Source of the DNA: Triparma columacea
Lineage: Eukaryota; Sar; Bolidophyceae; Parmales; Triparmaceae
Length of the DNA stretch: 64,000 nucleotides
Assembly (NCBI GenBank): GCA_030267965.1
Contig: BRYA01000439.1
Location: forward strand, 1-64,000
Reading direction: 5' to 3'
A program made the translations under genes and the position numbers. Position 1 is the stretch's first letter, and every line of letters begins with the position of its first letter. The notes beneath the pieces were generated by a model that was not told the DNA's origin, did not search any database, and saw nothing but the letters and a program-made list of their open reading frames with translations. Of this stretch, positions 10,031-63,164 are shown one piece after another.

Positions 10031-13000
10031 ATGGCCACAACCTCTCGCCCCGAAACAGGGGATGTTGTGGTAGTTGATAGTTCATTTGAGAATCTTCCGT
10101 CCGGGGAGGGGGTAAGTAGGGCGGTAGACGCTGCATCTGTGGAGTTTTTGGGCCCAAGGCCCCCTCGTCCTCGAGGGTCTGCCCTCCTTGATCTCTCCTC
10201 CTGTCGCCTTCTGACTCGTCCTCTCTCCTTCCCCCATTAGCTGAATGACATCCGTGGATTCTTCCAGGGCGACTTCGCTCTCGATACGCCAGAGAGCTTC
10301 GAGGCAGAGATTAGACTTAGGACGGCCGCCATGGGAAAGTTGTTGAAAGAGCAGGGTGCTGATGCTGCTGCTGCGGGTTTCGACATGGAGACCGCCTCGG
10401 TCGACGATGGCAAGCAGAGTAGTGCTTCCAGGAAGAATGTGAACGCTGCTGCCGAGAGGGTGGCTGCAAAGAAGAAGAGAATGGCGCAGACTCTGGCTCC
10501 TCAGAAGGGGGGTACCATGGGATTGCTGAATTTGGAGACGCTCAAGACGCTGTTTTCTGCCTCGGTAGATGCATCTTCAGGGGCGGGTGGCCTCAGTGAG
10601 GAGTCGATCATATATAAGAAGGCTAAGAAGGCCATGGTGGCCAAGGTGAGAATGAGACTGGGAGGAACGAAGCGACAATATTGACTCCATGCAGTAGTCC
10701 TAACGCCTTCTTTGTTGTCTTTTTGCCCTCCCCTTCACACCCTTTCGATCCTCTCGCAGCAAAAGAGGGCGCTCAATGAGGTCCTCGAGGGGGACTCGGA
10801 CCTCATTAGGATCGTCAAGGAGGCCGAACACATCAGGGAGCTGCAGAAAATGGAGGACGGTGAAGAAGTCCGGCCATCCAGTGAACCGGGGAGGAAGAAG
10901 AAGAAGCTGAGCAATGACCCCACCGCAAGCACCATTAGGAAAAAGGGAAAGGGTAAGAAGAAGAGGAAGAAGGAGAAGGAGAAGCAGGATTTCTCCAGGT
11001 TCCAGCGAGACCTCCGCGTAGTACAACCAGATTCGGAAACAGACGCGACAATTGCCGCAAGGAAGAAGAATGCCGCCCCCAAGGTGAATATTGCCAATGT
11101 GGTAAAGAAGGCAAACATGACCTTAAGAGAATTCCAGCTTATAGAGATGAGGTACAATGACGTTGCGCAGTTCTCTGTCGACATGCCGCAGCTTCTCCTT
11201 AACGCCCTCGAGCAGTACTCGGACCCGAGCGACGAGATGACTGCTTCCGTCATAAGTAGGGACGAGGCCAAGGCCGCCCTGGAGCAGTGCGAGATGTCCT
11301 TCGATATGAACGATCTCGAAGGCATGCTCGACGCGGCCTCCGAGAATGTGCTCGACAAGAACTCCGTGAACTTCAGGTCTTTCTGCGCCAAGGCGATGAA
11401 GAAGTACAGAAAGGACACCGTTTGCATCCAACTGGGGTCGGCCAAGGCGAGGAAGGCGACCGCCGCCCGAGACAACCCTCTCTCCATGTTCAGCATCGGC
11501 GAAGACGAGGCGACGATCGATGACGACGGGTCGAACATGGCCCCGCACGCGGCCTTTTTACTGAATAACTCGAGCGATGGTCAGATTGTTTCGACAAACC
11601 CGAACCTGCCCCCCCTGAAGATCCAGCAGGCCTTGGCCGTTAAGCACCTCAAGAAGGACGGCAATTTCGACGAGAACTTCGGTAGGGAGACCCCTCACCT
11701 GCTTCAGTCAAACTCCCGCGCTTCCATTCAGGACTTGCGCAGGGAGCTTGCCATGGCGGAGGCTGGTTTGCAGCAATTAAACTCCGAGGTTAAGAAGGGG
11801 GTGCAGTGGGTGCAGCTGAATTGCCCGACCGCCGTGAAAAACAACCGCGCCAAGAAGTACTGCAAACAGTGGGGCGTTGAGAAACTAAAGCGGTTCCTGA
11901 TGGGCCAAGACGCTTCGAATCTCATGAAGGGCTTCGAGAAGTGGAAGGATTACGTGCAGTTTGGAAAGAATGTGAAGAGCGTCGAAAAATTTATCAGGGT
12001 CAAGACGTGCTACAAGATTTTCACTATGCTCTCCACCTTCTGCCTCCGCCAGCAGGGGTCGGCGCTGACGCACTGGAATAACGTCATGATCATGCAGAGG
12101 AACAAGGAGTTCAACACCTGCTGCATTGAGATCCAGAGGTTGGTGCGCGGCTTCCTCGGGAGAGCGTTCGCTCACGAGGTGCTGAGAGATGCTAGCGCAT
12201 GCAAGATCCAGAATAGGTGGAAGTGCAAGAAAGCCAAGGCAATTACTGACGGTCTTAGGGTTCAGAAAGAGAGGAACGACGCTGCGACACTTTTGCAGAG
12301 AAGGTACCGGGGTTACAAGGACGTCGAGGCTGCCAAGTTCTTTGTGCAGGGCAAGAGGGAGGAGAAGGGCGCGCTGTCGATTCAAACTAGGTGGAGAGGC
12401 CGGGGCGACAGGGAGAGGGTTGCCAAGCTCAAGGAGGAGAAGGAGATGAACGATTCCGCGAGCCTGATGCAGAGGAGGTTCAGGGGCTTCGAGGCCAGGA
12501 AGGAGGTGGCGAAGAAGAGGAGAGAAAAGGAAATGCATGAAGCTGCGTGCGTTATACAGAGGAGGTACAGGGGCGTGCAGGGTCAGCTCCTCTACGCGCA
12601 CAAGAAGCTCGAGAGGGATTCGGCGAACATGATCGCTGGAGCCTGGAGGGTATACAAGGCCAAGCAGACGACTGCCGGGAAGATGCAAGCTTTCTTGAAG
12701 AAGAAGCAAATGGAGGAGGAAGACAAGGCGGCAAGGGTATTGCAGGGCAGGGTGAGGATACATGGCGCTAGGAGGAAGACAAACGGGCTTAGGAAGGCCA
12801 AGCAGGACAAGGAGGAAGACCAAGCCGCTAGGATTTTGCAGAACAGGGCGAGGGGATTCCATGCCAGGAAGAGGGTAAACAGGATGAAGGAGCAGAAGGC
12901 TGAAAAGGAGGAGCAGGATACCGCCGCCACATTGCTTCAGGGAAGGTTTAGGATCAGGGAGGCGAAGAAAAGCTGCAACAACAAGAGGGAGAACAACAGG

Positions 13001-16995: not shown

Positions 16996-19900
16996 ATGAC
17001 GACATCCACAACGTCATCCACAACGTCATCCATGCTATCAATAAATCTGAATGTAGCTATAATTGGACATGTTGATTCAGGTAAAACTACCTTATCAAAA
17101 CTACTATCTGACATGGGAAGCACGGCATGTGAGTGATTGCTGCCTTTTGAGCCATTTTCAGGCCTTTTGAGGGTCTTTGAGGGCATTTGAGGGTATGTGT
17201 TGGGTAGATGTGGTGCTATATGTGGGTATATGTTTGTGTATGCGTATATTCAAGGAGTCAGGTCCTCAGGCCTCGTCAAGGAAGATTATTCTCAAATGCA
17301 ACACACAGACACTCAGATAGACACTTCAACTGGTCGCCGCCGCTGATTCCCCTGATGAGAATGCCACCAACGTGGCTACTAAGATCTAAGATATTGTCTT
17401 TATTGACTTATTTATATGTTGTTGGTGGGAGTAAACCAAAGAACACTCCCACCAACAAAACAAAAACTCCCTCCAACACCACAACAACACTCCCTACCTG
17501 ACACCACAACAACACTTACACTAACCACTCACTAACCACACCACACCACTCACTAACCACAACAACACTCCCCACAGCATTTGACAAATCACCAGCAGAA
17601 GCCTCACGTGGCATAACCTTAGACCTCGGTTTCTCAACCTTTCTATCATCAACCCCAAACTCCACCTCCCCTCCCCTCCGCTTCACCGTCTGTGACTGCC
17701 CCGGTCACTCCTCCCTGATAAGGCAGGTCCTCTCCTGCCGTTCCATAGTCGACGCAGTCGTTCTAGTCGTGTCAGCGGTGGAGGGGGTGCAGGCGCAGAC
17801 CGTGGAGGTGAGAAGCCCGAGAAAGCTTTTTTAAGNNNNNNNNNNNNNNNNNNNNNNNNNNNNNNNCCCCCCCGGCCGCCCTACCCAAGGCAACCTGTTG
17901 AGGTTTTTCACTGTCAATTTTTTTCTTGCTAACTCTCCCCCCCCCTCCCCCTCCCCCTCCCCACCACCACCACCACCACCACACCCTCTCAAAAGTGCCT
18001 TGTGATAGCCGACACCGTGTTGAAGGGTCCTTCCCCCCACGCCCGTGGTCTCGTCGTAATCAGCAAGGTTGACTGTTCCCCCTGTTGCCTCCCCGGCACC
18101 CCGCGCTGGGATGAGGTCACTTCTGAGGTTAGGGACCTCGTTAAAGGGACCAACATGGAGGGTTGCGAGATCGTCCCCTGGAGCGCCAGGGAGGCGTCGA
18201 AGTACGGGGAAGGGGTCAAGGAGGGTATAAGGTCCAGCGTAAACGTGGGCAACGTTATGAGGAGTAGGGAGGGGGGGAGGGACAGGGACCTGTATTTTAT
18301 GATCGACCACTCGTTCGCGATCAGAGGGGTAGGGACGGTGTGCACGGGGACGGTGGTGGAGGGGGAAGTCAAGGTTGGGGACGAAGTTTGGTTCCCGAGG
18401 TTCAGGAAAGCGTGCAAAGTCAAGGTGAGAAGAACGAGAACGAGAACTAGGGAGGGGGGGGGATACGATACCACCGAAATCCACTAACACGAGGAAGCCC
18501 TTTTTCGCGATCCGCTCTTTCTCTCCTCGCTTCCTCTCTCACCCCCTGAAAAAATCTCAGAGCATCCAGTCCTTCAAGGAGCAGGTCTCCTGCATAACCA
18601 CCGGTGACAGGGCTGGCATATGCGTCTCCGGTCTCGACGCCAAGCAGCTCGAGCGCGGCGTCTGCGTCGGCACCGGTTCAGGCGTCGTAACAGTGAAGGA
18701 GGCCTGCGCCCTCGTTTCGAGGGTCAGGATGTTCAACCTCCTACCCATGAAGCCTGGGAAGTTCCACGTCACGGTGGGGAACGAGACGGTCATGGCTAGG
18801 GCGGCGTTCTTCGGGTCGAGGGAGCTGGGGAAGAAACCGGGGGGGGAGCTGTGGGACACGGAGGACTACGAGACGCAGGATCACTACATAGACGGCGACG
18901 GGGGGGGGGAGGGGGTCCAAGAAGGCGAAGGCGAAGGTCAGGGGTCGGGAGGGGGATCCGAAGGGTCCATCCAACCCCAGTGGGCCCTCCTGACGTTCGA
19001 CAGGCCCGTGGTGTGCAGGAGGACGGAGCGAGTTATTGGCAGCAGGCTCGACACCGAGGAGAAGTGCAGGCTGGCCTGGGAGGGGGAGATTAGGGAGACT
19101 TGGGATGGGAAGGGGAAGGGGAAGGGAATAGAGGATAGGCTGGTGTTTTACACGATTAAGGAGAAAAGGTGCAAGGTTGACAAGGTGGGGGAGGGCTGGA
19201 AGAGGTGAGAGGGTGGGGGGAGCCAAGCCTGGCCGGCGGCAGGAGCGAAGTATTGAAGGGGAAAGGATTGCAATATCAGCCCCCCAAACCTCCTGGAATA
19301 CGAAGCCCCTTATCGCTCTCCTCCCCATGGGTTGGAGGTACGACACGCCTTATGCTAACACGCCCCCCCCCCCCCCCCCACCGCTTAGGGAGTCTGACGG
19401 GAAGACGGTGTGGTTCGAAGTAATCGCCAAGAACCTCTTCGGGAAGGGGGCGGCAATGGGGGACTTCAAGGGCCTGAAGCTCCTCTCCCCGGAGGGGGAC
19501 GTGGGGGTGCTGCAGGGGGCGTTTGGGACGGAGGGAAAGTTCAGGGTCTCGTTCCCTGGGGGTACGCAGGTCGGGGAGGGGGGGGAACTCTTGCTCAAGT
19601 TCAAGGTGAGAGGGGGGGCGAGGCTAAGGCATAAAAGAACTGTATGGTCTTCTCGCCCGCAAAAGAAGCAATCTTCCTAACCCCTCCCGGTTCTCGCAGA
19701 GGATAAAGGGTGACAAGACCAACAAGATGGAACAGGGTTTCATTGAAGTCCCTGAGAGGGCTGCGGGGGAGAGGATCAAGGTTGAGGGCGAGGATGAGAA
19801 GGTGGGTAAGAAGGGTAAGAAGGGGGTTGATGCCCCGCCTCCTCCCCCGACATCAAAGGTCGACACGGACCGTGTGGGGGAGGTAGAGAAGGACAAGGGG

Positions 19901-22437: not shown

Positions 22438-24048
22438 TTAAGCGCTCTCTACCTGAGCCTCGACATACTCCTTCCCCAAAATGGCCTTCACAGTCTTCCA
22501 CTCCTCCGTCTCTAGTGCCTTATTGTGGTCAAGGGCTCCTCCCTGCTTCTTCCCCTTCTCGTCGTACGCCACGGTCAGGGGGTCCGTTTCCTTGGGGACG
22601 TGGAGGTAGGCCGGCTCGACGACCTCGGTGACGAGCTCCTGGTCGATGAAGCTGATGTTCTTCTTGGCCAAAATTAGAACTCCGTCGGCGGGGGGAGGGA
22701 CGCGGTCGTCCTTGATGGGCTTGCCGTCGACGAGGGTCCCCTTGTACATGACGAGGGAGTCTGAGTTGAAGGCCATGAGGTGCTTGTAGCTGTAGAAACC
22801 GGGGACGGAGTCGAAGCCGGTTTGGACGGGCCAGCGGAAAGCGGGGTAGTCATCGTTTTTGTAGTCGAGACCGTTCTTGACATAGTCGAAACTGTTGAGG
22901 GGGAGGATCGGCCACGCGAAAAGGGTTGGGTTAGTGGTGTTGAGTGAAGCGATTCACAGGAAGGTTACATAGCCACTGTCGACACCCCCTCGTGCATCCG
23001 CAGCGCCCCTCCCCGCCCTCAAGGTTATCGCTGCGCTCCTTTCTCTCCCTCCCGCTCCCCCTTTACCACCCGATTCTCACCTCTTCTGCTGTCCGAACTC
23101 CTCGTCGGGGACAATCTTCCCCCCCTGGGTGTCGTCCCTGGCGGATTTAAAGTAGTCGAACGCCTGCAGGGTAGGCATGATCTCTACCATGGCCTTGGTG
23201 TAGACGTCGTCGTACTCGAGGGTCTTCTTGTCGTCGGTGGAGATGACGTTGCCGTTCTCGTCCTTGACATCGAAAGGGATCCTCGTGTCACCCTGGACAA
23301 AGACGGAGACCGCCTTGGTGTCCTTAAGCACAGAGGAGATGACGGAGGGGTCGGTACAGGAGGAGGGGAGGGTGGCCAGGACGAAACCGGCACGGGCGCA
23401 GGCGAACTGGAGGACGTGGTACTCGGCGGTGTCGGAGGGGAGGATTGAGAGGATGGTGTCCTTGGGGGCCACGCCAATCTCAAGGAGGCCGGAGGCTGAT
23501 GGTGGAGTGGGGGGGTTGGAGGAGTGAAGGAGTTGGGGGTGGGGGTGAGATGGTGGAAAGGGAGCACTTTCTGTAGAGAGCGGAGCCCACTTTCTGTAGA
23601 GAGCCCACTTTCTGCAGAGAGCCCATTCTCTCCCTCTCACCTAATGCGTCGCTGTACTTCTTCATTTCTGATATCGTCCTGTTTGTGGGTGAGAGGGGTA
23701 AGTGTCAGTCTAAAGTAGTGCTCCAAAACGTCTTAATATTCTCCTAAATGTGATCCTAAAGGTACTAATATCCACATATATATATATAGGTCAGTTCGTC
23801 CCTCTCTGATGACTCCCCTAACTTTCGATTTAAAGCATGTATGACATTCAAACACAGACTTACCACTTCATATTAGCCTGTTTATCATATCTAATAGCAT
23901 CACGATGAGGAAGTGTAGAATTAAGGCCATTTAAACTGTCAACGATTGAGGCGAGGCTCCGAGCTTGATTGCCCAAAATTAGCCCTCCATTACTCAACAC
24001 TCTCCTACAGGCTACACCTCTTGATACTCTTGATACTACGGATAACAT
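22438..24048 (-). CDS. Truncated acyl-CoA-synthetase-like (ANL N-domain) protein, probably mitochondrial
   Basis: Four exons on the minus strand: 24048-23864, 23678-23641 (38 bases), 23495-23081 and 22891-22438; phases 2, 1, 2; 363 residues. The N-terminus (MLSVVSRVSRGVACRRVL) is Arg/Ser-rich and looks like a mitochondrial presequence. Residues 45-135 resemble the start of AMP-forming acyl-CoA synthetases: LPHRDAIRYDKQANMKWT, a YSDALASGLLEIGVAPKDT helix, then FACARAGFVLATLPS. The ATP-binding YTSGTTGxPKG motif and everything after it are absent. Instead there is a 200-residue region containing two FDY-type segments (FDYFKSARDD, FDYVKNGLDYKNDD) and a Pro-rich C-terminal part. It therefore cannot be an active adenylating enzyme. 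It may be a structural or regulatory pseudoenzyme. The exon joins all keep frame, so a pseudogene is unlikely. Confidence 0.7.
23574..23629. repeat. Three copies of a 17-20-bp repeat in an intron
   Basis: CACTTTCTGTAGAGAG appears three times with slight changes between exons 2 and 3 of the acyl-CoA-synthetase-like gene. Confidence 0.7.
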
Positions 24049-24365: not shown

Positions 24366-27296
24366 ATGCCATCCACCTCTAAAAAACCCTCCTCCAACGA
24401 GAATTCAAAACTACTCTCCCTCGCTAGTGACATTGGGGTGAGCCGGGTCGCCCTCAGGGGCGAGGACCTGGCTAAACTGAGCTCGGGATCAGGTAAGCAT
24501 GAGAAGAAATCAAAGTAACACACGACCAACGGACTTGTGGGTGTAGGAATGATATCTATCCGGTGATGATCTCCGAATACCCCCCGCTTTACTCCAATAC
24601 AAATGTTCTAACCCAAAAATACAACCCCTCTCTTGGCTCACCACAGAGTCTAATTCTTCCCTCGGGAACTCGTCTGCCAGCAGCGGTGATGACTCTACTC
24701 TCAAAGTCGCCGCGGACCCATCTCCTCGTAAAAAGGGCGGAGACAGAGACGTTCCTGATCTGGACAACTCCAGCAGCCTTGACTCTGACAGTGGGCTGCT
24801 CAATGACAGCGACGACAGCGACACAGTGCACCTCAGCTTGCCGGGGAGCTTCGACGACACGCTCAACTTCGATAATATTGTTTTCGGCATCGAGAGGGGT
24901 GGAGGGGGGGGGGGGGGAGGGATGCACATGGGGATGGGGATGCACATGGGAGGGGGGGGTGTCGGTCCCTCCTCCCAGAAGCTGCTTGACAGGATCCAGG
25001 ACCTCGAGCAGAGCCTTACGAAGCAGAGGCTCAGGCACGAGGAGGAGGTCCGCAGTTTGAAGAACCGGTACGAGGACCAGTCTTCAAGGGTGACTACGGA
25101 GGCGCTGGAGAGGGATAGGGAACTGACACTCATGCAGCAGAGACTGGCGGATAGGAAGGAGAACTTCAGGGAGCTCGCGATATCAGACAGCCTATTTAAG
25201 GAGGTAAGGCGGAACGAGGAGCAAGCGTCAGGAGCGTCAGGATGAGCGATGCGACGACCCCCGCCCCTCCCTAAATCCCAACCCTCTCTTCGCTTCGCTC
25301 TCGTCGCAGCTGGAGAACCTCCCGGAGAGCCAGCTTACGCTGAAGGAGTTCGTGTGCGTCACGGCTCACAGGAGCACGAGGAGGTACAAGGAGGAGCTGG
25401 CTGGTAGCAGGGCCAAAGTAGATGAGATTCAGGAACTGCTCAATAAGACTACGGACGCGAACGAGAAAAGCTTGAGAGAGGCGCAAAGGGCTAGGAAGGT
25501 GGCGGAAGGAAGAGAGGAGGGCCTGAGGATCGATCTGACGACGAGTGAGGACAGGCTAAAAGAGGTGGAGGGGAAGGTGAGAACAGGAGTAGCGAAGCGA
25601 CGACAGTGACGCAATACCAACCTCCTCCGCTCCTTGCGCTCCTCGCAGGTCCGCGACTTCCAGAGGACCGTCGCTGACTTGAGGGAGAAGGGGCGCAAGT
25701 TCGACGAGACTCTACAGAGGGCCAAGACGGCAGAGAAGAAGTACGATGACCTCAGGAAACTGGCGGAGGACCAGGCTTCGGCGCTGAACAATGCGGCAGA
25801 CAACGAGAAGAAGGTCGTGCAGAAGAGCCTAGACAGCGAGGTGAGGTTTCGTTGGCGTTATTTAGGGCACAACGACAATTCTAATCATTAGCTCAACCCT
25901 TCCCGCACCCTTCCCGCAACTCGCTTCTCTCATCGTCACAGCACCAGCTCCAGCTGCTCAGGATGGACAAGACGTTCCTCCAGAAGGAGTTCGAGCTCGC
26001 GACGCAGAGGGCGGACAGGGCCGAGAAGGACAACATGAGGAACGAGGACCTGCTCAGGGAGAGCATGGTGAAGAGAGACGAGCTCCTGATGCAGCTCAAC
26101 GAGGCCAGGCACTCCGGCAAGGGGGCGTACGAGCAGAAGCTCGAGAAGGAGATCGGCAGGCTCCGCGAGGACAGCGCCCGGGAGATGCAAGAAATCAGGA
26201 ACAACAACGACCAGGTCTGGGAGCGGGAGAACAAGATGCTCAAGGAGCAGAAGGCGGACGCGTTCAAGCAGTACGAGATGGTGATGCACGACCTGCAGGA
26301 GCTGAGGAGGACGCACGAGGCGCTGGTGCTGAGGCACGCGAAGATGGGAAGCGAGCAGGAGGCGGGGGTGCTGGAGGTTAGGAACGAACTCAAGATGAAG
26401 GACTTTGAGGTGAGGCAAAGGGAGACGAAGCGGAAGTACGGGAAGGGGGGCGAAGCGGAGACGTGGATTGTTTGCTAACCTCCTGGTGCTGCGCGATCCT
26501 CGCACGCGAACCTCTCTCCTCGCAGATCGCCAAGCTGGCCGCCAGCCTCGAAGAGGTCAGGTTGGTCAAGAAGGAGTCGGACCTCCTGGTGGAGCACCTC
26601 CGGGCATCCCTTGCCGTTCACCAGTCCGAGTTCGCAAACCTGAAGCAGGAGGCCAAGGCTGACAAGGAGATCCTCCTCGACAAGCTCCGGGGGAAGGACG
26701 AGCAGCTCGAGGTCTACCTTCAGGCGGAGATCAACTTTGAGGCCCAGATAGAGGAAGGGGAGGACCCAGGGGCGATAGCGGCGCTGAGCGCTCCGAGGAG
26801 GAGGGTTCAGCACGCTGTCACGCTCGCGAGGAGGTGCGTTGACATCGAGAAGGCCAGGGTTGAGTTGGGCCTGCAGAATGATGTGCTAAGGGAGAGGGTG
26901 GTGGAACTGGAGGGAAGAGTGCAGGACGCGGAGAGGAGGATCGAGACGGTGAAGCAACCAACGAAGTACGTGATGGACAGCATCGCTGAGAAAGACGGGG
27001 TCATAAAGGCGCTCAGGGAGGAAGGGGAGAAGAGCAGGAAAGAACTGGAGGGGGTGAAGGAGGAGCTGAGGGCGGTGCTGGAGAGGAGAGAGGGTCTCGA
27101 GAAGGTGCAAGAAATCGTGAAGGGATTTGCGGGGGGGGGGGGTGACGTCCAGGGAGGATATATGCAGGGGAAATACGTTGTTGAAGAACCAGTGATGCCG
27201 CAGATGCAAGTGGAACAACAGGCGGACCTCAGTATTCACCTGGAGAGAAATACGAGCCCTACCAAGGGGGGATTTCACAAGTCTGGAGGAAACTGA
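24366..27296 (+). CDS. PIBF1: CEP90 / PIBF1 orthologue, centriolar coiled-coil protein
   Basis: Six exons: 24366-24492, 24647-25203, 25310-25576, 25649-25840, 25942-26409, 26526-27296; 793 residues. A Ser-rich disordered N-terminus and a Gly/Met-His insert are followed by continuous coiled coil. The C-terminal third matches PIBF1/CEP90 as I know it: an acidic segment (EINFEAQIEEGEDP), then APRRRVQHAVTLARRCVDIE, followed by a helix ending QPTKYVMDSIAEKDGVIKAL, and the LERREGLEKVQEIV end. In animals and ciliates CEP90 works with MNR/OFD1/FOPNL to build distal appendages and permit ciliogenesis. The gene implies a ciliated life stage. The last 35 residues after a Gly run are lineage-specific. 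Confidence 0.85.
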
Positions 27297-27421
27297 GGGG
27301 TTCGGGCTTGTAGGAGTGTGCATAAAAAGCATAGAGGTGGTAGATGAGAAACTCATGGTTTTGAAGACAGAACACCAACAAAAAAATTGTTTTTGGCTCG
27401 TTTAAGTAGGTCGTTTAGTAT

Positions 27422-27512
27422 GTTATTGACGCTGCATAAACTGTTTTTGACACTGTATAAAGTGTTTTTGACACTGCATAAACTGTCACTGTCTCTGTAT
27501 AAACTGTCGTTG
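27422..27512. repeat. 21-bp tandem repeat between convergent genes
   Basis: Units starting at 27422, 27443, 27464 and 27485, plus a partial one at 27506, follow the pattern GTTTTTGACACTGCATAAACT with a few changes. They lie between the CEP90 stop and the ferredoxin stop, probably in 3' UTR sequence. Confidence 0.85.
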
Positions 27513-27538
27513 ACGCAACAAATAATTCGCAACCTCAC

Positions 27539-29373: not shown

Positions 29374-31057
29374 ATGTCAGAATCAGCGGATGGCTGCAAA
29401 GGATTGAGCAATGTGACATTCGCGGTGCTCAGCTCTGTCATAAGCTTGGCGATCGCGGGGGTGGGGTACATATTGGTGGGGATAAACGATAAATTGGTCA
29501 AGATTATGTCTGACCCGAGAAATAAAATAACCAGGCAGGAGGTGAGGGGGGAGTGGAGAGGGAAGGGGGGGAAGGGGGGGGCTGGGTTAGTGAGATGGTG
29601 CTACTTGTAGGGTAGGACCGTGCTGTTCACTACACAGGATTGTGCTCTACTCTTGATGCTCTCATGCTACCCCTGAGAGCGCTTGGCCTTGATCACGTGA
29701 CCTCATCTCACCTCCATTCCCACCTTCAGGCCGACCCCGTGAGCATAATGAGAGAGATTGGGGCTGCCCGCCCTGAGCAGGAGGTGAGAATATACAAGAA
29801 GTGAACGATCATCAAAAGGAGCGAAGCGACGATTTCAATGCACTGCAGAACTAACCTCCAACTCGTCGCTTTGCTCCTCACTCCTGACGCTCCCCGCAGT
29901 TTGGGTCCCGTGATTTGAGCGACCTAAAGGAGCGCGCGTTCAGCGCCAAGCCCGCCAGGAGGCTCAGCCTGAGCTTCAGCTTCAGGGAGCCAAAGAAGGA
30001 CACGAAGGAGTACGAGTGGGAGATCAAGTGGAAGGAGATTAGGCTGGAAGAGAAGGTTGGCGAGGGAAGGTGAGGATGCATATATCACTTTCTCTAAAAC
30101 CGACCGAACCGTAGCTCACTTCCCTCATCCCCCCCCCCCCTCCCGCAGCTTCGGGGAGGTATTCAAGGCGAACTGGTTGGGGACTACGGTCGCTGTAAAG
30201 ACCATGCATAATTCTGACAGTAATGCTTTGAAGATGGACAAATTCCTCGGGGAGATTGCCCTCACCTCTACCCTGCACCACCCTAACATTGTGCTCTTCT
30301 ACGGGGCCTGCGTTGAGATCCCCAACGTCTGTCTGGTGATGGAGTACCTCACCACGAACCTGTACGACCTACTCCACACCCGAAGCCAGCACCAGATACA
30401 TTTCTTCATTCTCCACAGGTTTGCTTGCGACGTGGCCAGGGGGATGAAGTACCTACACAGGAGGTGAGAATGGTCAAAACTGAAGATGGAAATGCGGAAA
30501 TGACGTTTCCTCTACTCTACTAATGCAACCGTTTCCGGTGACTTTTTTCGCTCCTCCCCCCCAGAGCCAAGATCATCCAGAGGGACCTCAAGTCAAGAAA
30601 CGTTATGGTTGATAACAACTTCAACGCGAAGATGTGCGACTTTGGCCTCAGCAGATACATCAAGACCGACAAGACAATGACCTTCTGCGGGACCCCCTAC
30701 TGGACGGCCCCGGAGATCATCAGGCAGGAGCCCTACACCGAAAAGGCTGACGTATACAGCTACGGGATTGTGCTCTGGGAGCTAATCACCGCGCAGGAAC
30801 CCTACAGCGGAATGGAGAGCATGGAGGTGGCCTACGCCGCAGCAGAAAGGGGGCTGAGGCCTAGCATTCCCAGTGTTTGCCCCGAGGGTTACTCAGAGCT
30901 CATGCAGAGGTGCTGGAGCGACGAGCCGGACGAGAGGCCAGACTTCACCGAAGTCATGGTCATATTGTTTGAAATTAAGCGGTCTTTTGAGAACCTCATG
31001 ACCCCCGCTATGAGAGCGTCGACTCGTAGGAAGAGTATCGAAGAGTATAGGGAGTAA
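29374..31057 (+). CDS. Membrane-anchored TKL (Raf/MLK-like) protein kinase
   Basis: Five exons: 29374-29541, 29730-29783, 29900-30069, 30149-30463, 30565-31057; 399 residues. The N-terminus carries one hydrophobic segment (FAVLSSVISLAIAGVGYILVG, about 16-36), then a short cytosolic linker. The kinase domain is complete: glycine loop GEGSFGEV (128-135), VAVK Lys148, alpha-C Glu166, DFG at 261-263, CGTPYWTAPE and APE. It ends with DERPDFTEVM, a TKL hallmark. The catalytic-loop HRD is QRD (241-243), with DLKSRN otherwise intact, so the catalytic Asp is present. Activity is likely but the His-to-Gln change is unusual. It is probably a serine/threonine kinase of the plant/protist MAPKKK-like group; substrate unknown. 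Confidence 0.9.
29817..29878. repeat. Inverted repeat forming a hairpin inside a kinase intron
   Basis: The arms AGGAGCGAAGCGACGA (29817-29832) and TCGTCGCTTTGCTCCT (29863-29878) are reverse complements with one change, which would be a G-U pair in RNA. They lie inside the intron 29784-29899. A similar GCGAAGCGACGA or TCGCTTCGCTC motif occurs in several other introns of this window. Confidence 0.85.
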
Positions 31058-31177: not shown

Positions 31178-34100
31178 TCAAACGTTATTAACATCGCTCA
31201 TATCATAAGCCCCCCCCACCCCCTTCTTCTTTTCGTCGAACATGGGATTTTCCGACATCCTCACGGTGTCGTCGTCGCTGTCGTCCTTCTCGGCATCCTC
31301 GCCCCCCCCCTTCGAGCCCCCCGAGTAGGACTTCCCGAAGCTCTTGACGCGGTCCCTCCCCTTTTCCCCGAAGCTCTTGACGCGGTCTCTGCCCTTCTCC
31401 CCGAAGCTCTTGACGCGGTCCCTGCCTTTCTCCATCAAATCTTTGGCCTTCACGACTCCCCTAGCGCCCTTGCTCTTGAGATACCTAAGCTTGGCAGCCG
31501 CAAACTCCTTGTTGATGACCGTCTTGGTGACAAGCTCTCCATTTGCGTCCTCGCTGACTTCGATTTCTTTGGATTCCATCACCTCTCCGGCGGCTGCCTC
31601 GACTGCAGCGATGTTTTTCGCTTCATCACCTTTCAGGTTCATCACCTTTCCGGCGGCTGCCTCAATCGCAGCAATGCCGTCCTCGCCCTCTGCTTGCTTG
31701 AAGTCCCCATCTCCAACGAGCAAGCCGACAACTTTGGCGACTCGCTCCTCGATGGTGGGCATGAGGTAGTTGAGCAGCTTCTTATTGGCGACGGCCTCGA
31801 GAGTGGCCGTTGGGAGCACCTTCAGGAGGGGAATTTCCTCCTTCAAGTTCTTAACGGCATTTGATCCAGCCTCGACGATTTCTGCCGAGATGATAGAGCA
31901 GATGGCAGGCGTGAGCTGGTCGATCAGCTTCCTCCAAAGTCTCATGTCAGAGGCAAAGGTGCGTTGATCAAACGGGGTCGACATGCGGCTACTCATATCC
32001 ATGGACATGCGGTTGTCCATGTTTTCACCGAGGGTCTTTTGGAGCTCCTCGATGAAAGCCTCTGTCCCTTGCTCCATACACTCCAGGTTACTCATGCCAG
32101 TCCTCTTCGCCGCCATTGCTGCGGTATAGAACTTGGTAGTCGGGGTTTTAAGCTTCGCTTGAAGCTTCCCCGGGAACTCTTTTAGGGCATCATCGCCAGC
32201 CTTCGCGACTGCATCAATGACCTGCTCTGCCTGTGTAGTAAAGATGTTCTCGGGGTGGCAACAAGAGATCCGCTCGTAGAGGCTCTGGACGGGGCCCCAA
32301 CACGACCTGAACAAAGTACGCAACATACTGAAGGTGATAGTTGCCAACGTCGCGTCAGTCATCACCTTAATGGCGTTGGCGAAATCCACGGCACCGAGGT
32401 GAGCGAAGAAGGGCATGAGAAGGGTGAGGAGCTGCATAAAGTATATGAAGAACTCGCTGAAGTTGCTTGACATCTTCTGGTAAGGCAGAAGGAACCCGAG
32501 ACAAACCATCGACCCGATTGCAAGGGCGGCGCTCATGCCCGCCTGCACAGCGCCATTGTCGGCAGCCACGGTAAGGATGAAGATGAAAAGGATCTTCCTG
32601 AAGCAATCCAAAAAGAAGAAAGTGAAGCCCACAGCAGTCATCTTGGAGAACACGCTACTGAACGATGCAAAAAAGAGGGTCGTGACTCTGTTCGCAATCG
32701 TGTGGTTGTAATTCTTCCTGTCGAGGTCAAGGGACCACTACCAGTGAGGAGGAGGGAGGAGGTGTTAGGGGGATTTCGTGTGTGGAGTGGAGGAGCGAAC
32801 AAAACCGTTCCTGCGACTCGCTTCGCTCACCTTGCCGGTTCTGTTCTTCAGCTGGTAAACAGCCTCCATGTACCGTTCCTTGATGGACAAGTTGCTCTCC
32901 TTGGAGTTGGAGTCCTTGTACTTCACAAGTTCGATGTCCGAGGGCATGGCCTCCTCGCGCTGTTCCTTTGACATGCTTCTTAACCTCGAGTCCATGGCCA
33001 TGGAGACGGTGCGAATACGCTTGTTGGGATTCCAGCAGAACCAAGCGAAGAAGCCGAGGACGCCCAAGACAGCGATGATCTGAAGAGACGCCAAGAACTT
33101 CACAAAACCATGAACTTCACCAGAGTTTATAGTAACCATGGCCGTCTGGACAATACCCTGGTAGTAACAGAAGAAGAGGAGGACCTCAGGGGCGGGAAAG
33201 AGAAGAGAGGCAGGGAGCCTGAACTTGGGGTTTTTGAAGTGGATTGCCAGCTTGCGAGTGACGAATCCAGCAAAGCGCAGGTGCAATTTCACTAACACGA
33301 GAGAGCCAACGAGAATGAAGATGAAGTTTCCGAGCCACAACTCCTGCGATGCATGAGAAAAATATTAAATCTCGCGGTGTTAGAATGTATGGTATCACTC
33401 CGCCCATGTTCGCTCTATGCACATCTCACCTCAGCGCTCATATCCATGGAGAGGAGGAACTGCTCGTTGGCACTCAGCGTGACCCCGCTGCCGGGGATCG
33501 GCTCCTTGATCCTGGTCCCTATGCGGAAAGGTGGCCTAACTTGAAAGTTTAACCATGACATGCCCGACCCTATTCCTTTGAAGGAGAGCGTTTCGGCCAC
33601 ATCGGGGAGGGCCAACTGCTGCCCCAGGGATGCGAACTGTACGACAAAGATCATACTGATAGGATCGCCCCCCCCAACGCCCCCCCCCCCCCCACCGGCG
33701 CCAACACCGGCGCCCGCCCCTCCACCCGTGACGGCTCCGCCAACACTCGCAGTGACAGCTGTGGCAGCAGCGACCGAGGCCGTCGTGGTGACGGCCTGGA
33801 TGAGCGCAGGAACCCCAGTTGAAAGGCAGTACGTGGAACCCTCACCGCTGGCCTTCCCCGAGGGGCACTTGGTACAGGTCGCGTTGCTCGTGGCACCCAC
33901 GACGTTGCTGTACGTATTTTCCGGGCACTTGGTGCAATTCTGTTTGAACATCATGCCTAACTTGTCGTTGTAAGTTCCAGCGATGCAAGTGCGGCAAGAA
34001 GACTGAGCGGTCTGGTTGTTCCACTTCCCCTGCACAGTGAAGCGCAGGCAGCGGCGACGAGTGAAGTGGGGGCGAAGGTTAGTGGATGATAAGTTGAGGG

Positions 34101-47756: not shown

Positions 47757-49096
47757 ATGAATATCTTCTTTCTCACTTTGATCCTCGCGATCTTCACCGT
47801 CGCATGGGGGGAAGATATGGCTAAGAAGCTCAAGGACGAGCTTGAGGACAGGCAGGCTATGGCATTTGCCAAAAGTTTGTGAGTATCGGTGTCGTGGTTG
47901 ACGGTTGTTGTCCTTGAACTCAAAAAAGTTAAGGCAATTACGAGCCGAACCATTAAATACCAAGCCCCCCCGCGCGATAATATCGCTCCTATGACCCCCC
48001 CTCCCCCGCACCTCAAGATTCTACCCCCCATCTCACCCCTTCCCTCCCCCCACTCCACAGGGAGGCCTCTATTGGGAAGCAAAAGTTGAAGGATATGGTC
48101 GATCATGCGCAGGGCAAGAAGAAGTCGTCCAGCCTCCTGGTTGACATGTTGGAAAAGAGTGGCTCCTTTAATGGCGAAGCTGAAGTTCATGTTGAAGATG
48201 GCGAGGGAGGAAGTGAGATTGGAAGAGGAATGAGTGAAGAAGGCTGGTAGTTTGAAGTGCTAACGCAACGCAACGCATCGCCTCCCCCCTGCCCCCCCCC
48301 GCAGTAACTTTTATGAAGGGGAAAGATCTCCTCAATAAGATGAGGGACCAGGAGGCATTTACCGACAAGGTTAAGCAGAACGCTGACGGCTCCCTCGTCA
48401 GCGAGGAAGAGGGCACGATCAGCCTAGACGAGCTCAAGGACTCGAAGGAACACGGGCAGCTCCAGGCCTTCATTGCCATCGGCCGCCTCGGCCACCTCAT
48501 AATACAGTCCGTCGGCTACGCCAACGGAAACCTGACTAACATCCAGAGTTCCCCCCGCTACACACCTCCCACCCACGCGGAACTCGAGAAGGTGAGAATC
48601 TTACTGCGACGAAAAGACACCCACGCCATAAGCTGACCCTTTCCGCTCATCGCTCTTTTTTTTGTAGATGGACAAGCGTGGTAGGCCCAACATGCCCGAG
48701 CTCATCACGATCTCCGTTAGCAACGGGGAGACCTACGAGCTGGAGTTTGACTTCAACCGGAAGTACAGACTAGGAGTTGGCTTGATTTCCGGGTGGAGGT
48801 TGAATAGGGGTACCATGGAGAGGGAGGTGAGACAAAGACAAAGGATGTGCCGCTTGACTGCACCCGAACTGCCACAGCACCAAATCCGCTAACGCTACCC
48901 TCTCCGCTGCTCGCTTCGACCGCCATTTCAGAAAGACCTGGTCCTCCCAGCGCCCGAATTGGAGCCCCTGCTGTTTGGGTACAAAATCAAGGACATTGAA
49001 AGTTTCTCCATCAAGTTTGGAAGCCTCCTGATGGTCATCGGCACCATAAGCTACCTTTCCGGGATGTACTTGGACAGCAAGAGCAAGGCTGACTAG
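47757..49096 (+). CDS. Unrecognised type I membrane protein
   Basis: Five exons: 47757-47878, 48061-48212, 48305-48591, 48668-48826, 48932-49096; 294 residues, all joins in phase. It begins with a signal peptide (MNIFFLTLILAIFTVAWG) and ends with one membrane helix (FGSLLMVIGTISYLSGMYL) and a short Lys-containing tail (DSKSKAD). The lumenal part is charged and helical, including LLNKMRDQEAFTDKVKQN and LITISVSNGETYELEFDF. The topology suggests an ER or Golgi membrane protein. No family is recognised. The frame-perfect five-exon model is strong support for a real gene. Confidence 0.75.
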
Positions 49097-50315: not shown

Positions 50316-53300
50316 ATGTCCCTTCCGTCGGGTGTCCCCTCCTTCACGTATGTCGCCTTTAAGTCGGCCTCAACTGAGCTAGAAATGGACGATCTGTCCA
50401 AGCAAGACAACACCCTTCAACTTATCGAGCCCAACAAGGACAAGCCCAAAGAGTTCGACAACCTTGAGGGGGTTTACGACAGTGACACCACGACTGACAA
50501 CACCATATACTCGGAGATGTTTGGCATTGGAGATTCGGACGAGATCGCGTCCCGACCCCGCCCCCTTCAGGCTTTTGTTGACAACTCCATGTCCCTCTGC
50601 GCCCTTGTTGTTGGCCCCACGTCTGGCGACAAGACGCGCCACTTCCAGGGCTCCAACGAAGACGAGCATGGTATGATCGGATGGGTGGCCGATCAGCTCT
50701 TCATGCAGCTCCAAGAGAAGGAGGACGCCGCTCAGAATCAGTACAAAGCTACAGGTGAGAATTGAGAAGAAGCTAGCAGCACGACAATTCTAAACGCTAA
50801 CGCAACCTTCTGCGCGACCCTCTTCGATCTCCTGACTCGCTTCGCTCGTTACAGTTTCTATAACGTTCCATGAACACTACGGGGAGATCATCACCGACCT
50901 TCTCAACCCAACCAATCGGGAACTCAGCATCAAAATCGACCCAGCCTTTGGCTATTGTGTGCACGGCATGACGAAGCACGTCGTTACTTCAGCAGAGGAA
51001 CTAAGGTCGAAGCTTGACTATGGAAAAAACTCCCGAAATGTTGCAATGTTTTCGACTGGCCCCGCCAACGAGTCTACGGGAGCCATATTCGAGATCGTGC
51101 TGAAACAGGAGGAGGGCGATGGCCCTAATTCTATGCAGACGATGATGTCTCGCATTCTCCTAGTTGATACTCCCCCCACTACTCCTCTGGTTGCGGGAGC
51201 CGAGAAGACCCGCAAGATTAAGGGTCCAGACCTCGCCAAATCTTTGTTCACGTTCGTTGACGTCTGTAAGGCACTCGCATCGAAACAGAAAAGAATGAAC
51301 GCACCGTTTGAACAGTCGACCTTCACGACTGTTCTCCATGACTCCCTTGGGGCTGATGCTCTCGTCATGTGTCTTGGAACCCTTTGCCAGGGGGAGCCCG
51401 AGGTCTCGTCGAAAACAATGAAGCTTCTTAGCCACTTCAAGAAGATTAACAACTACCCGATCGAGAACACGGAGTTGACGCAGGGGATAATGATCAAGTA
51501 CAGGACTGCCATCTCCAACCTTTTGGACAGGATAGAAGAGCTCAAGGTCGAGCACGCGGCAGCTCCGAAGGAGGACAAGGCCGCCTTGGAGCGTTTGAAG
51601 ATGCTCGAGGAGAGCCTACTGAAGGCGAACCACGAAGGTTCAATTGCCAAGGAGGATGGTTCAAAGGTTTACCGCATGTTGGAGCTTTTCAAGGCCAAGT
51701 ACAGCAAGCTGGTGGAGGACAAAGCCAGACAAGCGGAGGAGCTCATCCTGTCCGAAGAGCAGAAGTTGGAAATCAGCAAGGCCCTCCTCGACCTGAAGCT
51801 CGAGTTTTCCGAGGCAAACGAGAAATTTCAGAACGAAAAGGTGAGAATGTCAACATCATTGTTGCATGCCATAGCACAGCAACTGACGAACCCTTTCTCT
51901 CTCATCGCAGTACGCCCTTGAACTAAAGGCTTCCAACAAGGAAACCCAACTCCAAGACACACAAATTAAGTTGACAGACACCATGAATTTGCTGAAGGAC
52001 TCGCAGACGGCGGAGGAGGAGGCTCGGAAGGCGCAAAAGGAGATGCAGGAGGAACTTCAGAAAAAGGTGAACGAGTGCATCTCCCTCGAAGAGAAATACA
52101 GGGCCTCCAAGGACAACAGCACCGGGTTGGGCACCGAGGTGGCCACCCTAGTGAACCAGAAGGATCAGTTCACTAAGATGAACGCGTCCCTTACCGCCCA
52201 GCTTGAGACTGCCACGGCAAAGATATTAGATCTTGAATCTGAGGTGTCAAAGAACGAGGAGGCAATAGAAAGGTGAGAAGAAGATCGGCGGTGATAACAT
52301 TACAAACGTGCACACACACGGGGCCTGAAATAATTCTTACCCATTGTACGTTCACCCCAGGCTCGACGACGATTTGGGAAGGATCAAGTTAGAGCTTGAA
52401 GAGACGCACGCGCAGAAGAGTAAGGTGGAGCTAGAGCTCAAGAAGAAGGAGATCGGCTTTGAGCAGGCCAGGCTCGACATCGAAAAGAACACCGAAAATT
52501 TTGTTAGGCAGCGAGAGCACGAGCTCTTTAGCATCAGAAAGGCTTCTGAGGAGGAAGTTGCGGCCATCCGCAGGGAGAAGGAGGAGATCATCCGGACAAA
52601 TAACAAACTTGAGGGCGAGAAAAGGAGCCTTGATCGCAAAATTAGGGACATGAAGACCGACATCCAGCGCATCAAGGATGAGTCTTACTCAAAGAATAGT
52701 AACAGCAAGAGGCTCGAGGCCCAACTGAACGACGCCAGGGAGTCCTACAGGTCAAAGCTCCTAAGTTACCTTGGCGAGGAGGCCATGGCCGCCAAGTTGG
52801 CCGCCGACGATATCAGCAAGTTCATCGACAGCGACGACCAGAAGAAGGAAGACAAGCAGTCGGGGGACAAGGAAGCCGCCACGGCCTCCAGCATGGCCAC
52901 TGCGAACTCTCGCGCCGCCCTCGAGGACCTCATCAAGACCTACAAAACCAGGGAGAAGGATCTCCTCGACCAAATGGAAAAGATCAAAGAGGCCAACGAC
53001 AAGAACAAGAAGAAGAACCGAATCTTGTTCAACAGCTACTACAAGCTGAAGGACCAGCTCGAAGACGCAACTGATGGGCAGTTGGACGCAGAGGATCTCC
53101 CCGAGGAGAACGAAATGAAAATCACTGACTCAGAACTCGAGAAGGAGCGAGACGACGAGCTCCAGGCCCTTCGTCAAGCCGTTTCCCAACTGAGGAGCGA
53201 TGGAGCTATCCAGAAGGATAGAGCAGTGGAGCTCACGCAGTCATACAGGGAAATTTCGCAGCAGCAGGACGAAAAACTCAAGGAACTCGCGAGCAAATTT

Positions 53301-60837: not shown

Positions 60838-61178
60838 AAAGGAAGAGATGGGGGGGGTGACGTGTGTTATGAGAAGAAAGAAGCTATTTTTGTATCCGCA
60901 ACAAACATCAGCTATGGTAGCAGAAGCTTCTCTTTTTTGTGAGCTTATATGAGTGTGTGACCTTTTTTCGCCCAACCTTTCCCCCTCTTGCCCCCTCCCC
61001 CCTCTCCCCACCCCCTTCCTCCCCCCCCTCCCCCCTTCCGTCTCAACTATTCCCTCCTCCTAACAAATTGACCAGCACCCCCAAACTACTAGTTCTATCT
61101 ATCAGTTATCAAATGTTCGTGGCTGCTCTTATTTCAAGCGCCGCCTTTCTTCTTTCTCCTCCATCTTCTCATATATCT
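60838..61178. other. 3' intergenic region between convergent genes
   Basis: About 340 bases between two stops. It contains a C/T-rich tract (60965-61065). No gene seen; probably the two 3' UTRs. Confidence 0.5.
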
Positions 61179-63164
61179 TCAACCCCACCAGCTGGGCTTA
61201 TACGAATACTGTCCCCTCCTGTAATTGTGCTGCGCCCCATACCCGTTCGCTGCCCCGTATCCCTTCGCCGCCCCGTACCCGTTACCGTTACCTCCGTAGA
61301 CTCCGTGCGCCCTGCTGTACCCTCCCGCCTGCGGCCTGCGCTTGTTTCCTGCTCTAGGGTTGTTGGAGGATGGTTCCCGCCCGGGGCGGTGGGGCTTGTT
61401 GGCGTAGGATGCCTTGGGGGCCGCGGAGTACTTAACGCCCCCATTGGGCCGGGCGCCGGCTGCCCTATTGTTGGACGGGCGGGGTGGTAAGTCGCTGGCC
61501 TTCTTCTCGGGCCTGTCATTTCTCTGGTTCTTCTGCTGGTTCTGCTTGATTGGCGTCAAGGCCTTGCGGACGGGGGCGCTAGAGTTGCTGCTCTCGCGCC
61601 TCGTAGGCTTTTCAGAATGATTTCTGGCACCCTTGACGACCTCGGCGGCTCCTCCCTTGGCCTTGATGGGCATGGGGGACTTGGCTGCGATGGGAGCCTT
61701 GTTTTCCTCCTCAGAAACCGAAGCCAGTCCGTTGGGGTTGTTCTTCTTCTGAATGGCCTCCTTCCTGTCGCGCGCTGATACGGGCCAGGCTTCGGGGGAC
61801 TTGGGACGACTATCGGGGTAGCAGGGCTTGGGGAGTGCCGCGGAAATGCGGCGCTTGGGTCCGTGGGGGACCTTGATGGTCTCCATCAGGTCAATGGGCC
61901 GGTGGGACTCCGGGGCCACGGACCCATACCCCCCGGGCTTCATGTACTTCTGCACCTCGGGGGAGTTGAGGAGGTCCTTGGCGGAGGGCCTGGACCGCGC
62001 GTTCACGCGCATGAGCTTGGAAAGGACGGTGGACATCTCGTAGCTGTAGCACCTGGGGATGGACTTGTAGCGTCCGGCCATGACGGCGCGCTTGAGCTGG
62101 GGGAAGGAATCTCCGAGGAAAGGAGGGTGGAGGGCACAGAGCTCGTAGATGAGGCACCCGAGGGCCCACATATCCGAGGACTCGTTGTATGGCTTGTTGG
62201 CCCATATCTCGGGGCTCATGTAGTAGGGGGTACCGATCTGGGTCTTGAGGAGGCCGTGCTTCATCCTACGACGAGCGAAGTGAGTGGGGTTTAGCGAGAA
62301 GCGGGAAGGTTTGCGCTAGTAGGTGCGTTCGGAGTCGCCGCTTCACGACATTGATATCTGCCCATTCTCACCTCTTGGAGACGTTCATGTCCCCAATCTT
62401 GATGGTCCCATCGTCGCAAAGGAAACAGTTCGCAGGCTTGAGGTCGCGGTGGCATATCTTCTTGCTGTGCAGGTGGCTCAGCGCCTCGAGGCACTGGATC
62501 AGGTACGCCCAGATGACCTTCTCGTCGATGTACTGCCGGCGCTTCTTGTAGCGCTCGACCTTCTCGGCGAGGTCGCCGTAGGAGCAGTATTCCATTATGA
62601 TGCACAGCTCGGTGTCGCCGCGGTCGAGGAAGGCCTCGAGGAAACCGACGACGTCTGCGAAGGGTGAGACGGAGTGGGTGTAATTGGGTGAGGTTTGTTC
62701 GGGGTGTGTCCTATGGGGGCTTGACCAAGGGGGGGGGAGTTATCGGAGGAAGAGAGGGACCAGGCAGGTGTGGCGAACAGAACTCGCCATCAGGCAACTT
62801 ACACGGATGCTTGACGCTGGAAAGGAAACGTATCTCATTAAGAGTATCAGCAATCTCAGACTGCGAAGGGGGGGGGGAGGTAGGGGTTGTTAAAAAATGA
62901 TTTTAGGGGAATTAGAAGGAAACGGAACTCACCTGCTTCATCTTACTGATATTGACGCGCTTCAGAGCGTACGTCTTTCCATCAGCTCTCCGCTGAACCT
63001 GAAATGTGGGGAGACAAAAAAAGGTCAAGGCCGGGGTGTGAGGGGGGAGGGGGCTGGAATTTGAAGGACTGAGGAAGGGGGAGCGTTTAATTACGAACCT
63101 TCGTCACAGAAGCGAACGCGCCGGCCCCCAATTTCCCCACGACTTTGAAATCCTTCATCGGCAT
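61179..63164 (-). CDS. NEK-family (NIMA-related) protein kinase
   Basis: Five exons on the minus strand: 63164-63099, 62998-62933, 62860-62803, 62654-62372, 62265-61179; 519 residues. The first donor is GTTCGT, unusual for this genome. Kinase motifs: GKLGAGAFASV, ALKRVNI with Lys35, alpha-C Glu53, HRDLKPAN (132-139), IGDMNVSKR (DMN in place of DFG, a variant found in several protist NEKs), GTPYYMSPEIW and SSDMWALGCLIYEL. The typical NEK activation segment is complete. The C-terminal 250 residues are Lys/Pro/Asn-rich and end in a Gly/Tyr-rich stretch (NYRRGQYSYKPSWWG). NEKs control cilium length, disassembly and mitosis. With CEP90 in the same window, a ciliary role is plausible. Confidence 0.92.

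What the first reader, a model, noticed from the sequence alone, without database searches (positions are those of the whole stretch)
10646..62371. Introner-like family of introns with common ends and shared internal motif
About 37 of 48 inferred introns begin GTGAG and about 22 begin GTGAGA. Two unrelated genes share an even longer start: the NEK intron at 62371 and the propeller intron at 58089 both read GTGAGAATGGGYAGA and follow exons ending AAGAG, as does the intron at 23080. An element related to GCGAAGCGACGA or its reverse complement recurs inside introns near 10665, 25591, 25291, 29821, 32815, 38344, 50834 and 62335. Shared sequence among introns of unrelated genes is the hallmark of introners, mobile elements that create introns.
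Basis: partly seen in the sequence, partly recalled or inferred. Interest (0 to 1): 0.75.

Follow-up and report, generated by a model that had tools for sequence, protein, structure and literature searches.

The report
Mobile introns in a diatom relative
Many introns in unrelated genes of this small marine alga, a close relative of diatoms, are decayed copies of one mobile DNA sequence, so a single element has probably supplied a sizeable share of its introns.

Summary
The window is a contig of Triparma columacea (Parmales, sister group of diatoms). GTGAG alone is only splice consensus, but the introns share far more. A profile built from 45 introns of other contigs finds 31 matches (E<=0.1) in 262.7 kb, none in the reversed sequence; 21 lie in independently predicted introns on the same strand. 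Ten are in the window, including the NEK intron 62266-62371. The 5' end GTGAGAATGGACAAGAA (<=2 mismatches) occurs 435 times genome-wide (reversed control 23); the 3' end CTCGCTTCGCTCGTCGCAG 704 times (control 33). Two intron pairs in unrelated genes are 91% identical from splice site to splice site. One intron has a 96% identical copy lying antisense in another gene's intron; it stops just before the terminal AG. This favours movement as DNA over reverse splicing. No target-site duplication beyond AG was found, and the consensus has no terminal inverted repeats, though a few introns have inverted ends. Rough extrapolation gives several thousand copies. Intron gain itself (presence/absence) could not be tested. 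The propeller intron at 58089 shares only its first 15 nt and is not recovered by the profile.

The parts
62266..62371 (-). family intron in the NEK kinase gene, end to end, inside the kinase domain
   Evidence: HMM 1-123, E 2.3e-6; spliced protein 100% identical to TrCOL_g6001; Pfam Pkinase spans the junction
50755..50854 (+). family intron in a kinesin-like gene; best window copy, end to end
   Evidence: HMM 1-123, E 1.9e-9; 78% to the 87-nt consensus; finds only itself when searched alone; Pfam Kinesin spans the junction
25204..25309 (+). family intron
   Evidence: HMM 3-123, E 3.8e-4
25841..25941 (+). family intron; CAACGACAATTCTAAT...CTCAACCCTTC block
   Evidence: HMM 5-120, E 2e-5
30464..30564 (+). 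family intron inside a kinase domain
   Evidence: HMM 1-113, E 0.011; spliced protein 100% identical to TrCOL_g5988; Pfam kinase domain spans the junction
29784..29899 (+). family intron with reverse module GGAGCGAAGCGACGA and forward module TCGTCGCTTTGCTCC, complementary over about 15 nt
   Evidence: HMM 1-57, E 0.061
22892..23080 (-). family intron (internal part matched)
   Evidence: HMM 43-103, E 0.0034
18425..18560 (+). family intron, weak
   Evidence: HMM 1-112, E 0.09
48827..48931 (+). family intron; its end is my inference from the sequence (the gene finder ran on to 49096)
   Evidence: HMM 39-113, E 4.7e-5 at 48825-48918
32738..32830 (-). intron that starts with the 3' module in antisense (GTGAGCGAAGCGAGTCGC)
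   Evidence: HMM 84-116 on the opposite strand, E 1.6e-4
38231..38370 (-). probable family intron
   Evidence: HMM 19-107, E 0.11; E 0.0031 with the first seed model, of which it was not a seed
   Evidence: no DNA relative at E<=1; no HMM hit at E<=0.1

Best explanation
The introns are decayed copies of an introner: a short non-autonomous mobile element that carries its own 5' splice site (GTGAGAATGGACAAGAA...), branch site (CTAAC) and polypyrimidine/3' module (...CTCGCTTCGCTCGTCGC); 51 sampled family introns are 78-168 nt, median 112. When it lands in coding sequence on the sense strand next to an exonic AG, it is spliced out exactly and becomes an intron. Shown here: homology reaching the splice sites among introns of unrelated genes on different contigs; hundreds of counted module copies; for two window genes, spliced products identical to the deposited gene models; near-full-length copies in both orientations. 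Inferred: that it moves as DNA (transposon-like) rather than by reverse splicing, that the final AG comes from the target (the antisense copies stop just before it), and that each insertion created a new intron.
For: Independent profile: 31 hits against 0 (reversed) at E<=0.1 in 262.7 kb; 12 of the 15 hits starting at model position 1 start at a predicted donor, and 8 of the 11 ending at position 123 end at a predicted acceptor. Module counts 704 against 33 and 435 against 23. 51 of 60 fetched 3'-module copies have a GTRAG donor in range; the frame is open through the spliced junction in 44 of 44 with enough flank and through the unspliced one in 8 of 44. 20 of 20 fetched exact 5'-module copies (of 22 in the genome) follow AG. 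Introns picked by the 5' module carry the 3' module more often than introns at large (9 of 20 against 18 of 116 at <=5 mismatches, p=0.005), so the two modules belong to one element. End-to-end pairs at 91%: L060/L086 and L068/L069, with exons no more alike than random pairs. Antisense copy of the L076 intron in L145: 85 of 89 positions, stopping 2 nt before the intron's end. Further antisense copies: L136 and L138 on C117, three on C275 (L151, which contains L146 and L147); L139 and L133 match the profile antisense at positions 1-119 and 18-122.
Against: No target-site duplication beyond AG and no terminal inverted repeat in the consensus. No intron-free allele or relative could be compared. 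The window copies are old: 57973-58089 and 50755-50854 searched alone find nothing but themselves, as did a stretch with the NEK intron. By the published pairwise both-ends rule only two clusters of two introns form in my sample of 190; of 67 similar pairs, 50 share the 3' end, 15 the 5' end and 2 both, which fits module exchange or insertion into existing introns as well as whole-element insertion. 19 of the 100 listed 3'-module places do not end in AG, so the module also occurs away from an AG-type intron end, and 9 of 60 fetched AG-ending copies had no GTRAG donor within reach. No copy in the 262.7 kb is clearly intergenic by my reading, odd for an unconstrained DNA transposon. The AG before the donor in 46 of 51 is partly built in, because the script preferred donors after AG.
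Confidence: 0.85

Rival explanations
1. Intron transposition by reverse splicing: a spliced lariat of the family inserts into another mRNA after AG, is reverse transcribed and recombines into the gene. Copies would be exact, sense-only introns without target duplications, as proposed for Micromonas and fungi.
For: Whole-intron copies begin and end at the splice sites; 20 of 20 exact 5'-module copies sit directly after AG; no duplication beyond AG; no clearly intergenic copy among 31 hits by my reading.
Against: A near-full-length copy (1-89 of 91 nt, 96%) lies antisense to its host gene, and other antisense copies of 60-111 nt are in introns of C117 and C275. In four sense/antisense pairs the match stops before the terminal AG that a spliced intron would carry.
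Confidence: 0.25
2. Secondary insertion: short mobile or satellite-like modules (the 3' 60 nt) spread into introns that already existed, by insertion, tandem duplication or gene conversion between introns.
For: Several introns share only the 3' 60 nt at 95-100% (50 of 67 similar pairs share the 3' end); tandem copies of the 3' module; antisense modules near intron 5' ends (204 against 5).
Against: 5' module exactly at the donor in 20 of 20; end-to-end similar pairs; linkage of both modules.
Confidence: 0.2
3. Ordinary introns with an unusually long splice-site consensus and composition (purine-rich 5', C-rich 3').
For: GTGAG in 94 of 115 introns and a strong positional composition; shuffles that keep regional composition reach about one third to one half of the number of similar pairs at scores 12-18, and the best real pair (21.9) does not exceed the best shuffled one (28.2); own 5' and 3' halves pair hardly better than swapped ones (z -1.8).
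Against: Dependence between columns, shared blocks of 38-60 nt and more, 0 hits at E<=0.1 in the reversed control, 91% pairs.
Confidence: 0.04

Closest known systems
Introners of diverse eukaryotes (Gozashti et al. 2022, PMC9860276; outline, section 4 part 1, sections 8, 10 and 15, and passages seen)
   Same: Short introns of unrelated genes alike from splice site to splice site, aquatic protist host, carries its own 5' splice site, high copy number.
   Different: More decayed; no target duplication beyond AG and no terminal inverted repeat in the consensus; the pairwise both-ends rule gives only pairs in my sample. The main text names no Triparma, Parmales or Bolidophyceae; its supplement was not seen.
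Micromonas introner elements (Verhelst et al. 2013, PMC3879977; search listing and passages seen)
   Same: Large invasion of a picoeukaryote by introns that copy themselves into genes; 'target site duplication' does not occur in its main text.
   Different: Those are reported only in sense orientation in transcribed regions; here near-full-length antisense copies exist. No sequence comparison was made.
Fungal introner-like elements (PMC4457414; search listing and start of abstract only)
   Same: Near-identical introns multiplied in a genome.
   Different: Lineage; sequence not compared. Gozashti et al. [quoted passage not shown]
Aureococcus introners (figure legend in PMC9860276)
   Same: Stramenopile alga; carries both splice sites; DNA-level movement would fit the antisense copies.
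   Different: Those have 8-bp TSDs per the legend; none was found here.

Membership tests
Introner | Similarity between introns reaches both splice boundaries | tested here: met
   L060/L086 112 of 112 nt and L068/L069 whole intron, 91%; 9 of 31 HMM hits in the 262.7 kb cover model positions <=5 to >=118 of 123
Introner | Host genes are not paralogues | tested here: met
   For the two pairs, upstream-exon protein scores 22 and 22 against a mean of 19 and maximum of 26 in 60 random pairs; flanks differ by eye
Introner | At least four introns per family by pairwise E<=1e-5 at both ends (rule of PMC9860276) | tested here: inconclusive
   In 190 sampled introns: two clusters of two by both ends, one cluster of 31 by the 3' end, 38 by either end; the whole genome could not be clustered here
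Introner | Spliced out precisely | tested here: inconclusive
   Two spliced window proteins are 100% identical to deposited T. columacea models, and the one aligned has no gap against T. verrucosa at its two kinase-domain junctions. The deposited models are themselves predictions made without RNA-seq for this species, so this is indirect
Introner | Presence/absence between strains or species | not testable with these tools
   No other Triparma DNA was available to search
MITE / DNA-transposon introner | Target-site duplications | tested here: not met
   No significant excess of matches beyond AG in 73 introns; a 2-bp AG duplication cannot be told from a splice-site need
MITE / DNA-transposon introner | Terminal inverted repeats | tested here: inconclusive
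   The two ends of the consensus are not complementary, by inspection. An oriented inverted motif GAGCGAAGCGA/TCGCTTCGCTC lies subterminally, and L056 has the 3' module inverted at its 5' end and forward at its 3' end
MITE / DNA-transposon introner | Insertion in both orientations | tested here: met
   L145 antisense near-full-length copy; L136, L138 and three on C275
Reverse-splicing intron transposition | Sense orientation only | tested here: not met

The most novel reading that the evidence does not exclude
One introner lineage has supplied roughly 3,500-6,700 introns, of the order of a sixth to a third of all introns of Triparma columacea. It moves as DNA in both orientations, with antisense insertions also ending up as introns whose donor lies at the element's edge, and it takes the last two bases of its 3' splice site from the target.
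Probability: 0.35. Interest if true: 0.75.

Novelty: new member of a known kind. Interest (0 to 1): 0.6.

Why it matters
Introners are a leading explanation for bursts of intron gain. A family with thousands of copies in the sister group of diatoms would make that lineage a place to date an intron invasion: seven other parmalean genomes are published (Table 1 of PMC10328945), so presence or absence at each site is directly testable. Copies in both orientations bear on the open question of whether introners without target duplications move as DNA or by reverse splicing. Within the search library I found no paper that holds both 'introner' and 'Triparma' or 'introner' and 'Bolidophyceae', nor 'Triparma columacea' with 'intron'. 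The Parmales genome paper does not contain the word intron in its main text.

Tried and rejected
Gene finder: the first trained version merged genes and was replaced. One search looked for loci under wrong file names and was redone. Pairing of 5' and 3' halves as an own-intron hairpin: own pairs are hardly better than swapped ones (z -1.8), so no specific hairpin is claimed. Direct all-against-all alignment of 115 introns gives a two- to three-fold excess over region-preserving shuffles at scores 12-18, but the best real score (21.9) beats only three of six shuffle maxima (21.0 to 28.2); the family becomes plain only with profiles and genome-wide copies. Target duplications: rejected beyond AG. 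The 3' module was sought in viral contigs (IMG/VR): 0 exact matches. Rfam (gathering scores) and tRNA scans of the window: nothing. A covariance model without structure was built but could not be run on the genome. DNA searches with the single introns 57973-58089 and 50755-50854 found only themselves.

Picking of copies. One search lists 100 of its 704 places: 23 exact and 77 with one mismatch; 81 of the 100 end in AG and 19 do not. I fetched 60 of the 81 and none of the 19 in those calls, so '51 of 60 with a donor' is for AG-ending copies only. The nine without a GTRAG donor in range are L054, L055, L056, L058, L078, L080, L085, L094 and L096. Of 22 exact 5'-module places I fetched 20. In one search the acceptor was chosen by resemblance to the module, so its open-frame count (20 of 20 spliced, 7 of 20 unspliced) is weak evidence. 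The antisense loci are 20 of 204, picked by eye for the reverse module after AGGTGAG, so they show that antisense copies exist, not how common they are. Of 20 loci picked by the consensus search alone, 2 (L043, L048) look antisense to their host gene by my reading.
Full report
What the window is. The window is bases 1-64000 of an 82,715-base contig in a 37.85 Mb, 789-contig assembly. A kinase gene at 29374-31057, spliced by my gene model, is 100% identical over 399 aa to TrCOL_g5988 of Triparma columacea, on a contig of the same length. The NEK gene at 61179-63164 is 100% identical over 519 aa to TrCOL_g6001 and 76% to T. laevis f. inornata. T. columacea is in Parmales, Bolidophyceae. The published T. 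columacea assembly is 43.0 Mb in 1,858 scaffolds (passages of PMC10328945), so the held copy seems to be a reduced version (inference).

Checking the observation. No annotation was at hand, so I trained a simple splice-aware gene finder on 262.7 kb (contig C402 whole, parts of C36 and C62). It gave 98 genes and 156 introns, 115 of them confident. Of the 44 introns wholly inside the window, 32 start GTGAG and 20 start GTGAGA. The gene finder is approximate: the intron predicted at 48827-49096 is probably too long. GTGAG is the general splice consensus of the species (94 of 115). But the columns after it are not independent: GTGAGAATGGGC occurs 7 times against 0.38 expected. Contigs C36 and C62 were chosen because they hold GTGAGAATGGGYAGA, which inflates that count somewhat.

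A real family. MAFFT alignment of the GTGAGA introns and reading by eye suggested a consensus. An 87-nt version searched against the genome found 54 matches, best E 2e-11, with near-full-length matches at C28 (80%), C550 (78%) and window 50755 (78%). The 3' 19-mer at <=2 mismatches occurs 704 times against 33 for the reversed pattern, 23 of them exact. The 5' 17-mer occurs 435 times against 23, 22 of them exact. I fetched 60 of the 81 listed 3' places that end in AG: 51 have a GTRAG donor in range, 46 of the 51 after AG, a preference partly built into the script. In the 44 with enough flank the frame is open through the spliced junction in all 44 and through the unspliced one in 8; by my own arithmetic an arbitrary 89-nt stretch has some open frame about 58% of the time. 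A profile made from 45 of these introns, none from the 262.7 kb, was run on the 262.7 kb. It gave 31 hits at E<=0.1, against 0 in the reversed sequence (at E<=1: 36 against 5). 21 are in predicted introns on the same strand, 2 on the opposite strand, and 8 outside predicted introns. I read those 8: six look like sense introns of genes that the finder missed or cut short, two are antisense near intron 5' ends (C36 36957 and 37807), and none is clearly intergenic. Ten hits are in the window.

Recent copies. Among the sampled introns, L060/L086 (112 of 112 nt) and L068/L069 are 91% identical from the first to the last base of the intron, and in whole-genome searches the close match covers the whole intron query. 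Their exons are no more alike than random pairs. The two modules belong to one element: introns picked by an exact 5' module carry the 3' module (<=5 mismatches) in 9 of 20 cases against 18 of 116 for introns at large, p=0.005. Family introns lie more often in phase 2 than others (11 of 22 against 20 of 94, p=0.014) and follow AG in 22 of 22 against 85 of 94.

Copy number. Treating the two modules as two captures gives 412/(6/51), about 3,500, and 671/(2/20), about 6,700 (counts, controls subtracted). The density of HMM hits (31 in 262.7 kb) scales to about 4,500. These are rough: the samples are small, the contigs not random, and the stringencies differ. The same scaling of 156 introns gives about 22,000 introns in the genome.

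Orientation and boundaries. Downstream of AG|GTGAG within 30 nt the reverse module GAGCGAAGCGA occurs 204 times (control 5), the forward module 8 times (control 1). Part of this is an inner motif of the sense element (for example L117) and part is antisense copies. The clearest antisense copy: the intron of L076, bases 1-89 of 91, is 96% identical (85 of 89) to the antisense strand inside an intron of another gene, L145. L053 matches L136 antisense over 111 nt (86%), L062 matches L146 over 78 nt (95%), L071 matches L147 over 62 nt (97%). L146 and L147 lie within L151, a stretch of C275 in which three apparent successive introns, to my reading of one gene, carry antisense copies of the L062 type. 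In L076/L145, L062/L146, L071/L147 and L053/L136 the match stops exactly 2 nt before the end of the sense intron, so the final AG seems not to belong to the mobile unit. Sense copies sit after exonic AG, so an AG duplication is possible but cannot be told from the need for splice sites; nothing longer is duplicated. In L145 itself I see no AG duplication at the element's edges (sequence).

How it most likely works. Shown: descent of many introns from one sequence that carries a donor, branch site and 3' module; precise removal in two genes, judged by identity to deposited models and, for one, by no gap against T. verrucosa at the kinase-domain junctions; copies in both orientations. Inferred: transposition as DNA, creation of introns upon insertion, loss of antisense or misplaced insertions by selection. 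Reverse splicing fits the sense, splice-to-splice copies, but not the antisense ones unless those arose by later rearrangement. Sharing of only the 3' end between many introns (50 of 67 similar pairs share the 3' end, 2 of them both ends) and tandem 3' modules show that secondary exchange or duplication also occurs.

Comparison and novelty. In kind this is an introner. Against the rule of Gozashti et al. (PMC9860276, section 15), similarity to both ends and non-paralogous hosts are met for two pairs, while the minimum of four introns by pairwise comparison is not reached in my sample and cannot be tested genome-wide here. Micromonas elements are described as sense-only (PMC3879977, passages), which differs. 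I found no report for Triparma or Bolidophyceae in the library. The supplement of PMC9860276, which lists its species, was not seen, so an earlier record for a relative cannot be excluded.

What the check changed. On rereading my calls I corrected: seven, not eight, other parmalean genomes; 100, not 101, listed places, 19 of them not ending in AG; the shuffle maxima; L146 and L147 being parts of L151; the status of terminal inverted repeats and of precise splicing, both now inconclusive. None of these changed my odds.

Noticed in passing
63478-64000: Three near-identical repeat units spaced 186 and 209 bp (68-nt core 91% alike) with TTCCATTTGTGTCGAGAACACTGCTGCAGGGCAGCG, at the window's end close to a run of N.
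   Followed up: no
27421-27525: Tandem 21-nt units (TGTTTTTGACACTGTATAAAG type) between predicted genes.
   Followed up: no
31178-35359 (-): Gene whose predicted protein has many cysteine-rich short repeats and, by eye, a hydrophobic multi-pass part; one of its introns (32738-32830) begins with an antisense 3' module.
   Followed up: partly
G000 contigs C368, C750, C58: Several 3'-module matches in rows (about 0.8-1.1 kb apart on C368, 0.8-0.9 kb on C750, 0.6-0.7 kb on C58), and tandem copies of the CTCGCTTCGCTCGTCGC unit on C368; possible repeated gene segments or local spread.
   Followed up: partly
G000 contigs C106, C117, C275: Several copies close together, sense and antisense; on C106 a whole intron-like unit is repeated in tandem by eye (L053/L054), and three apparent successive introns on C275 carry antisense copies of one subfamily (L151).
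   Followed up: partly
window, throughout: Poly-G/poly-C tracts are frequent in introns and between genes, making low-complexity matches common and pairwise intron comparison noisy.
   Followed up: partly
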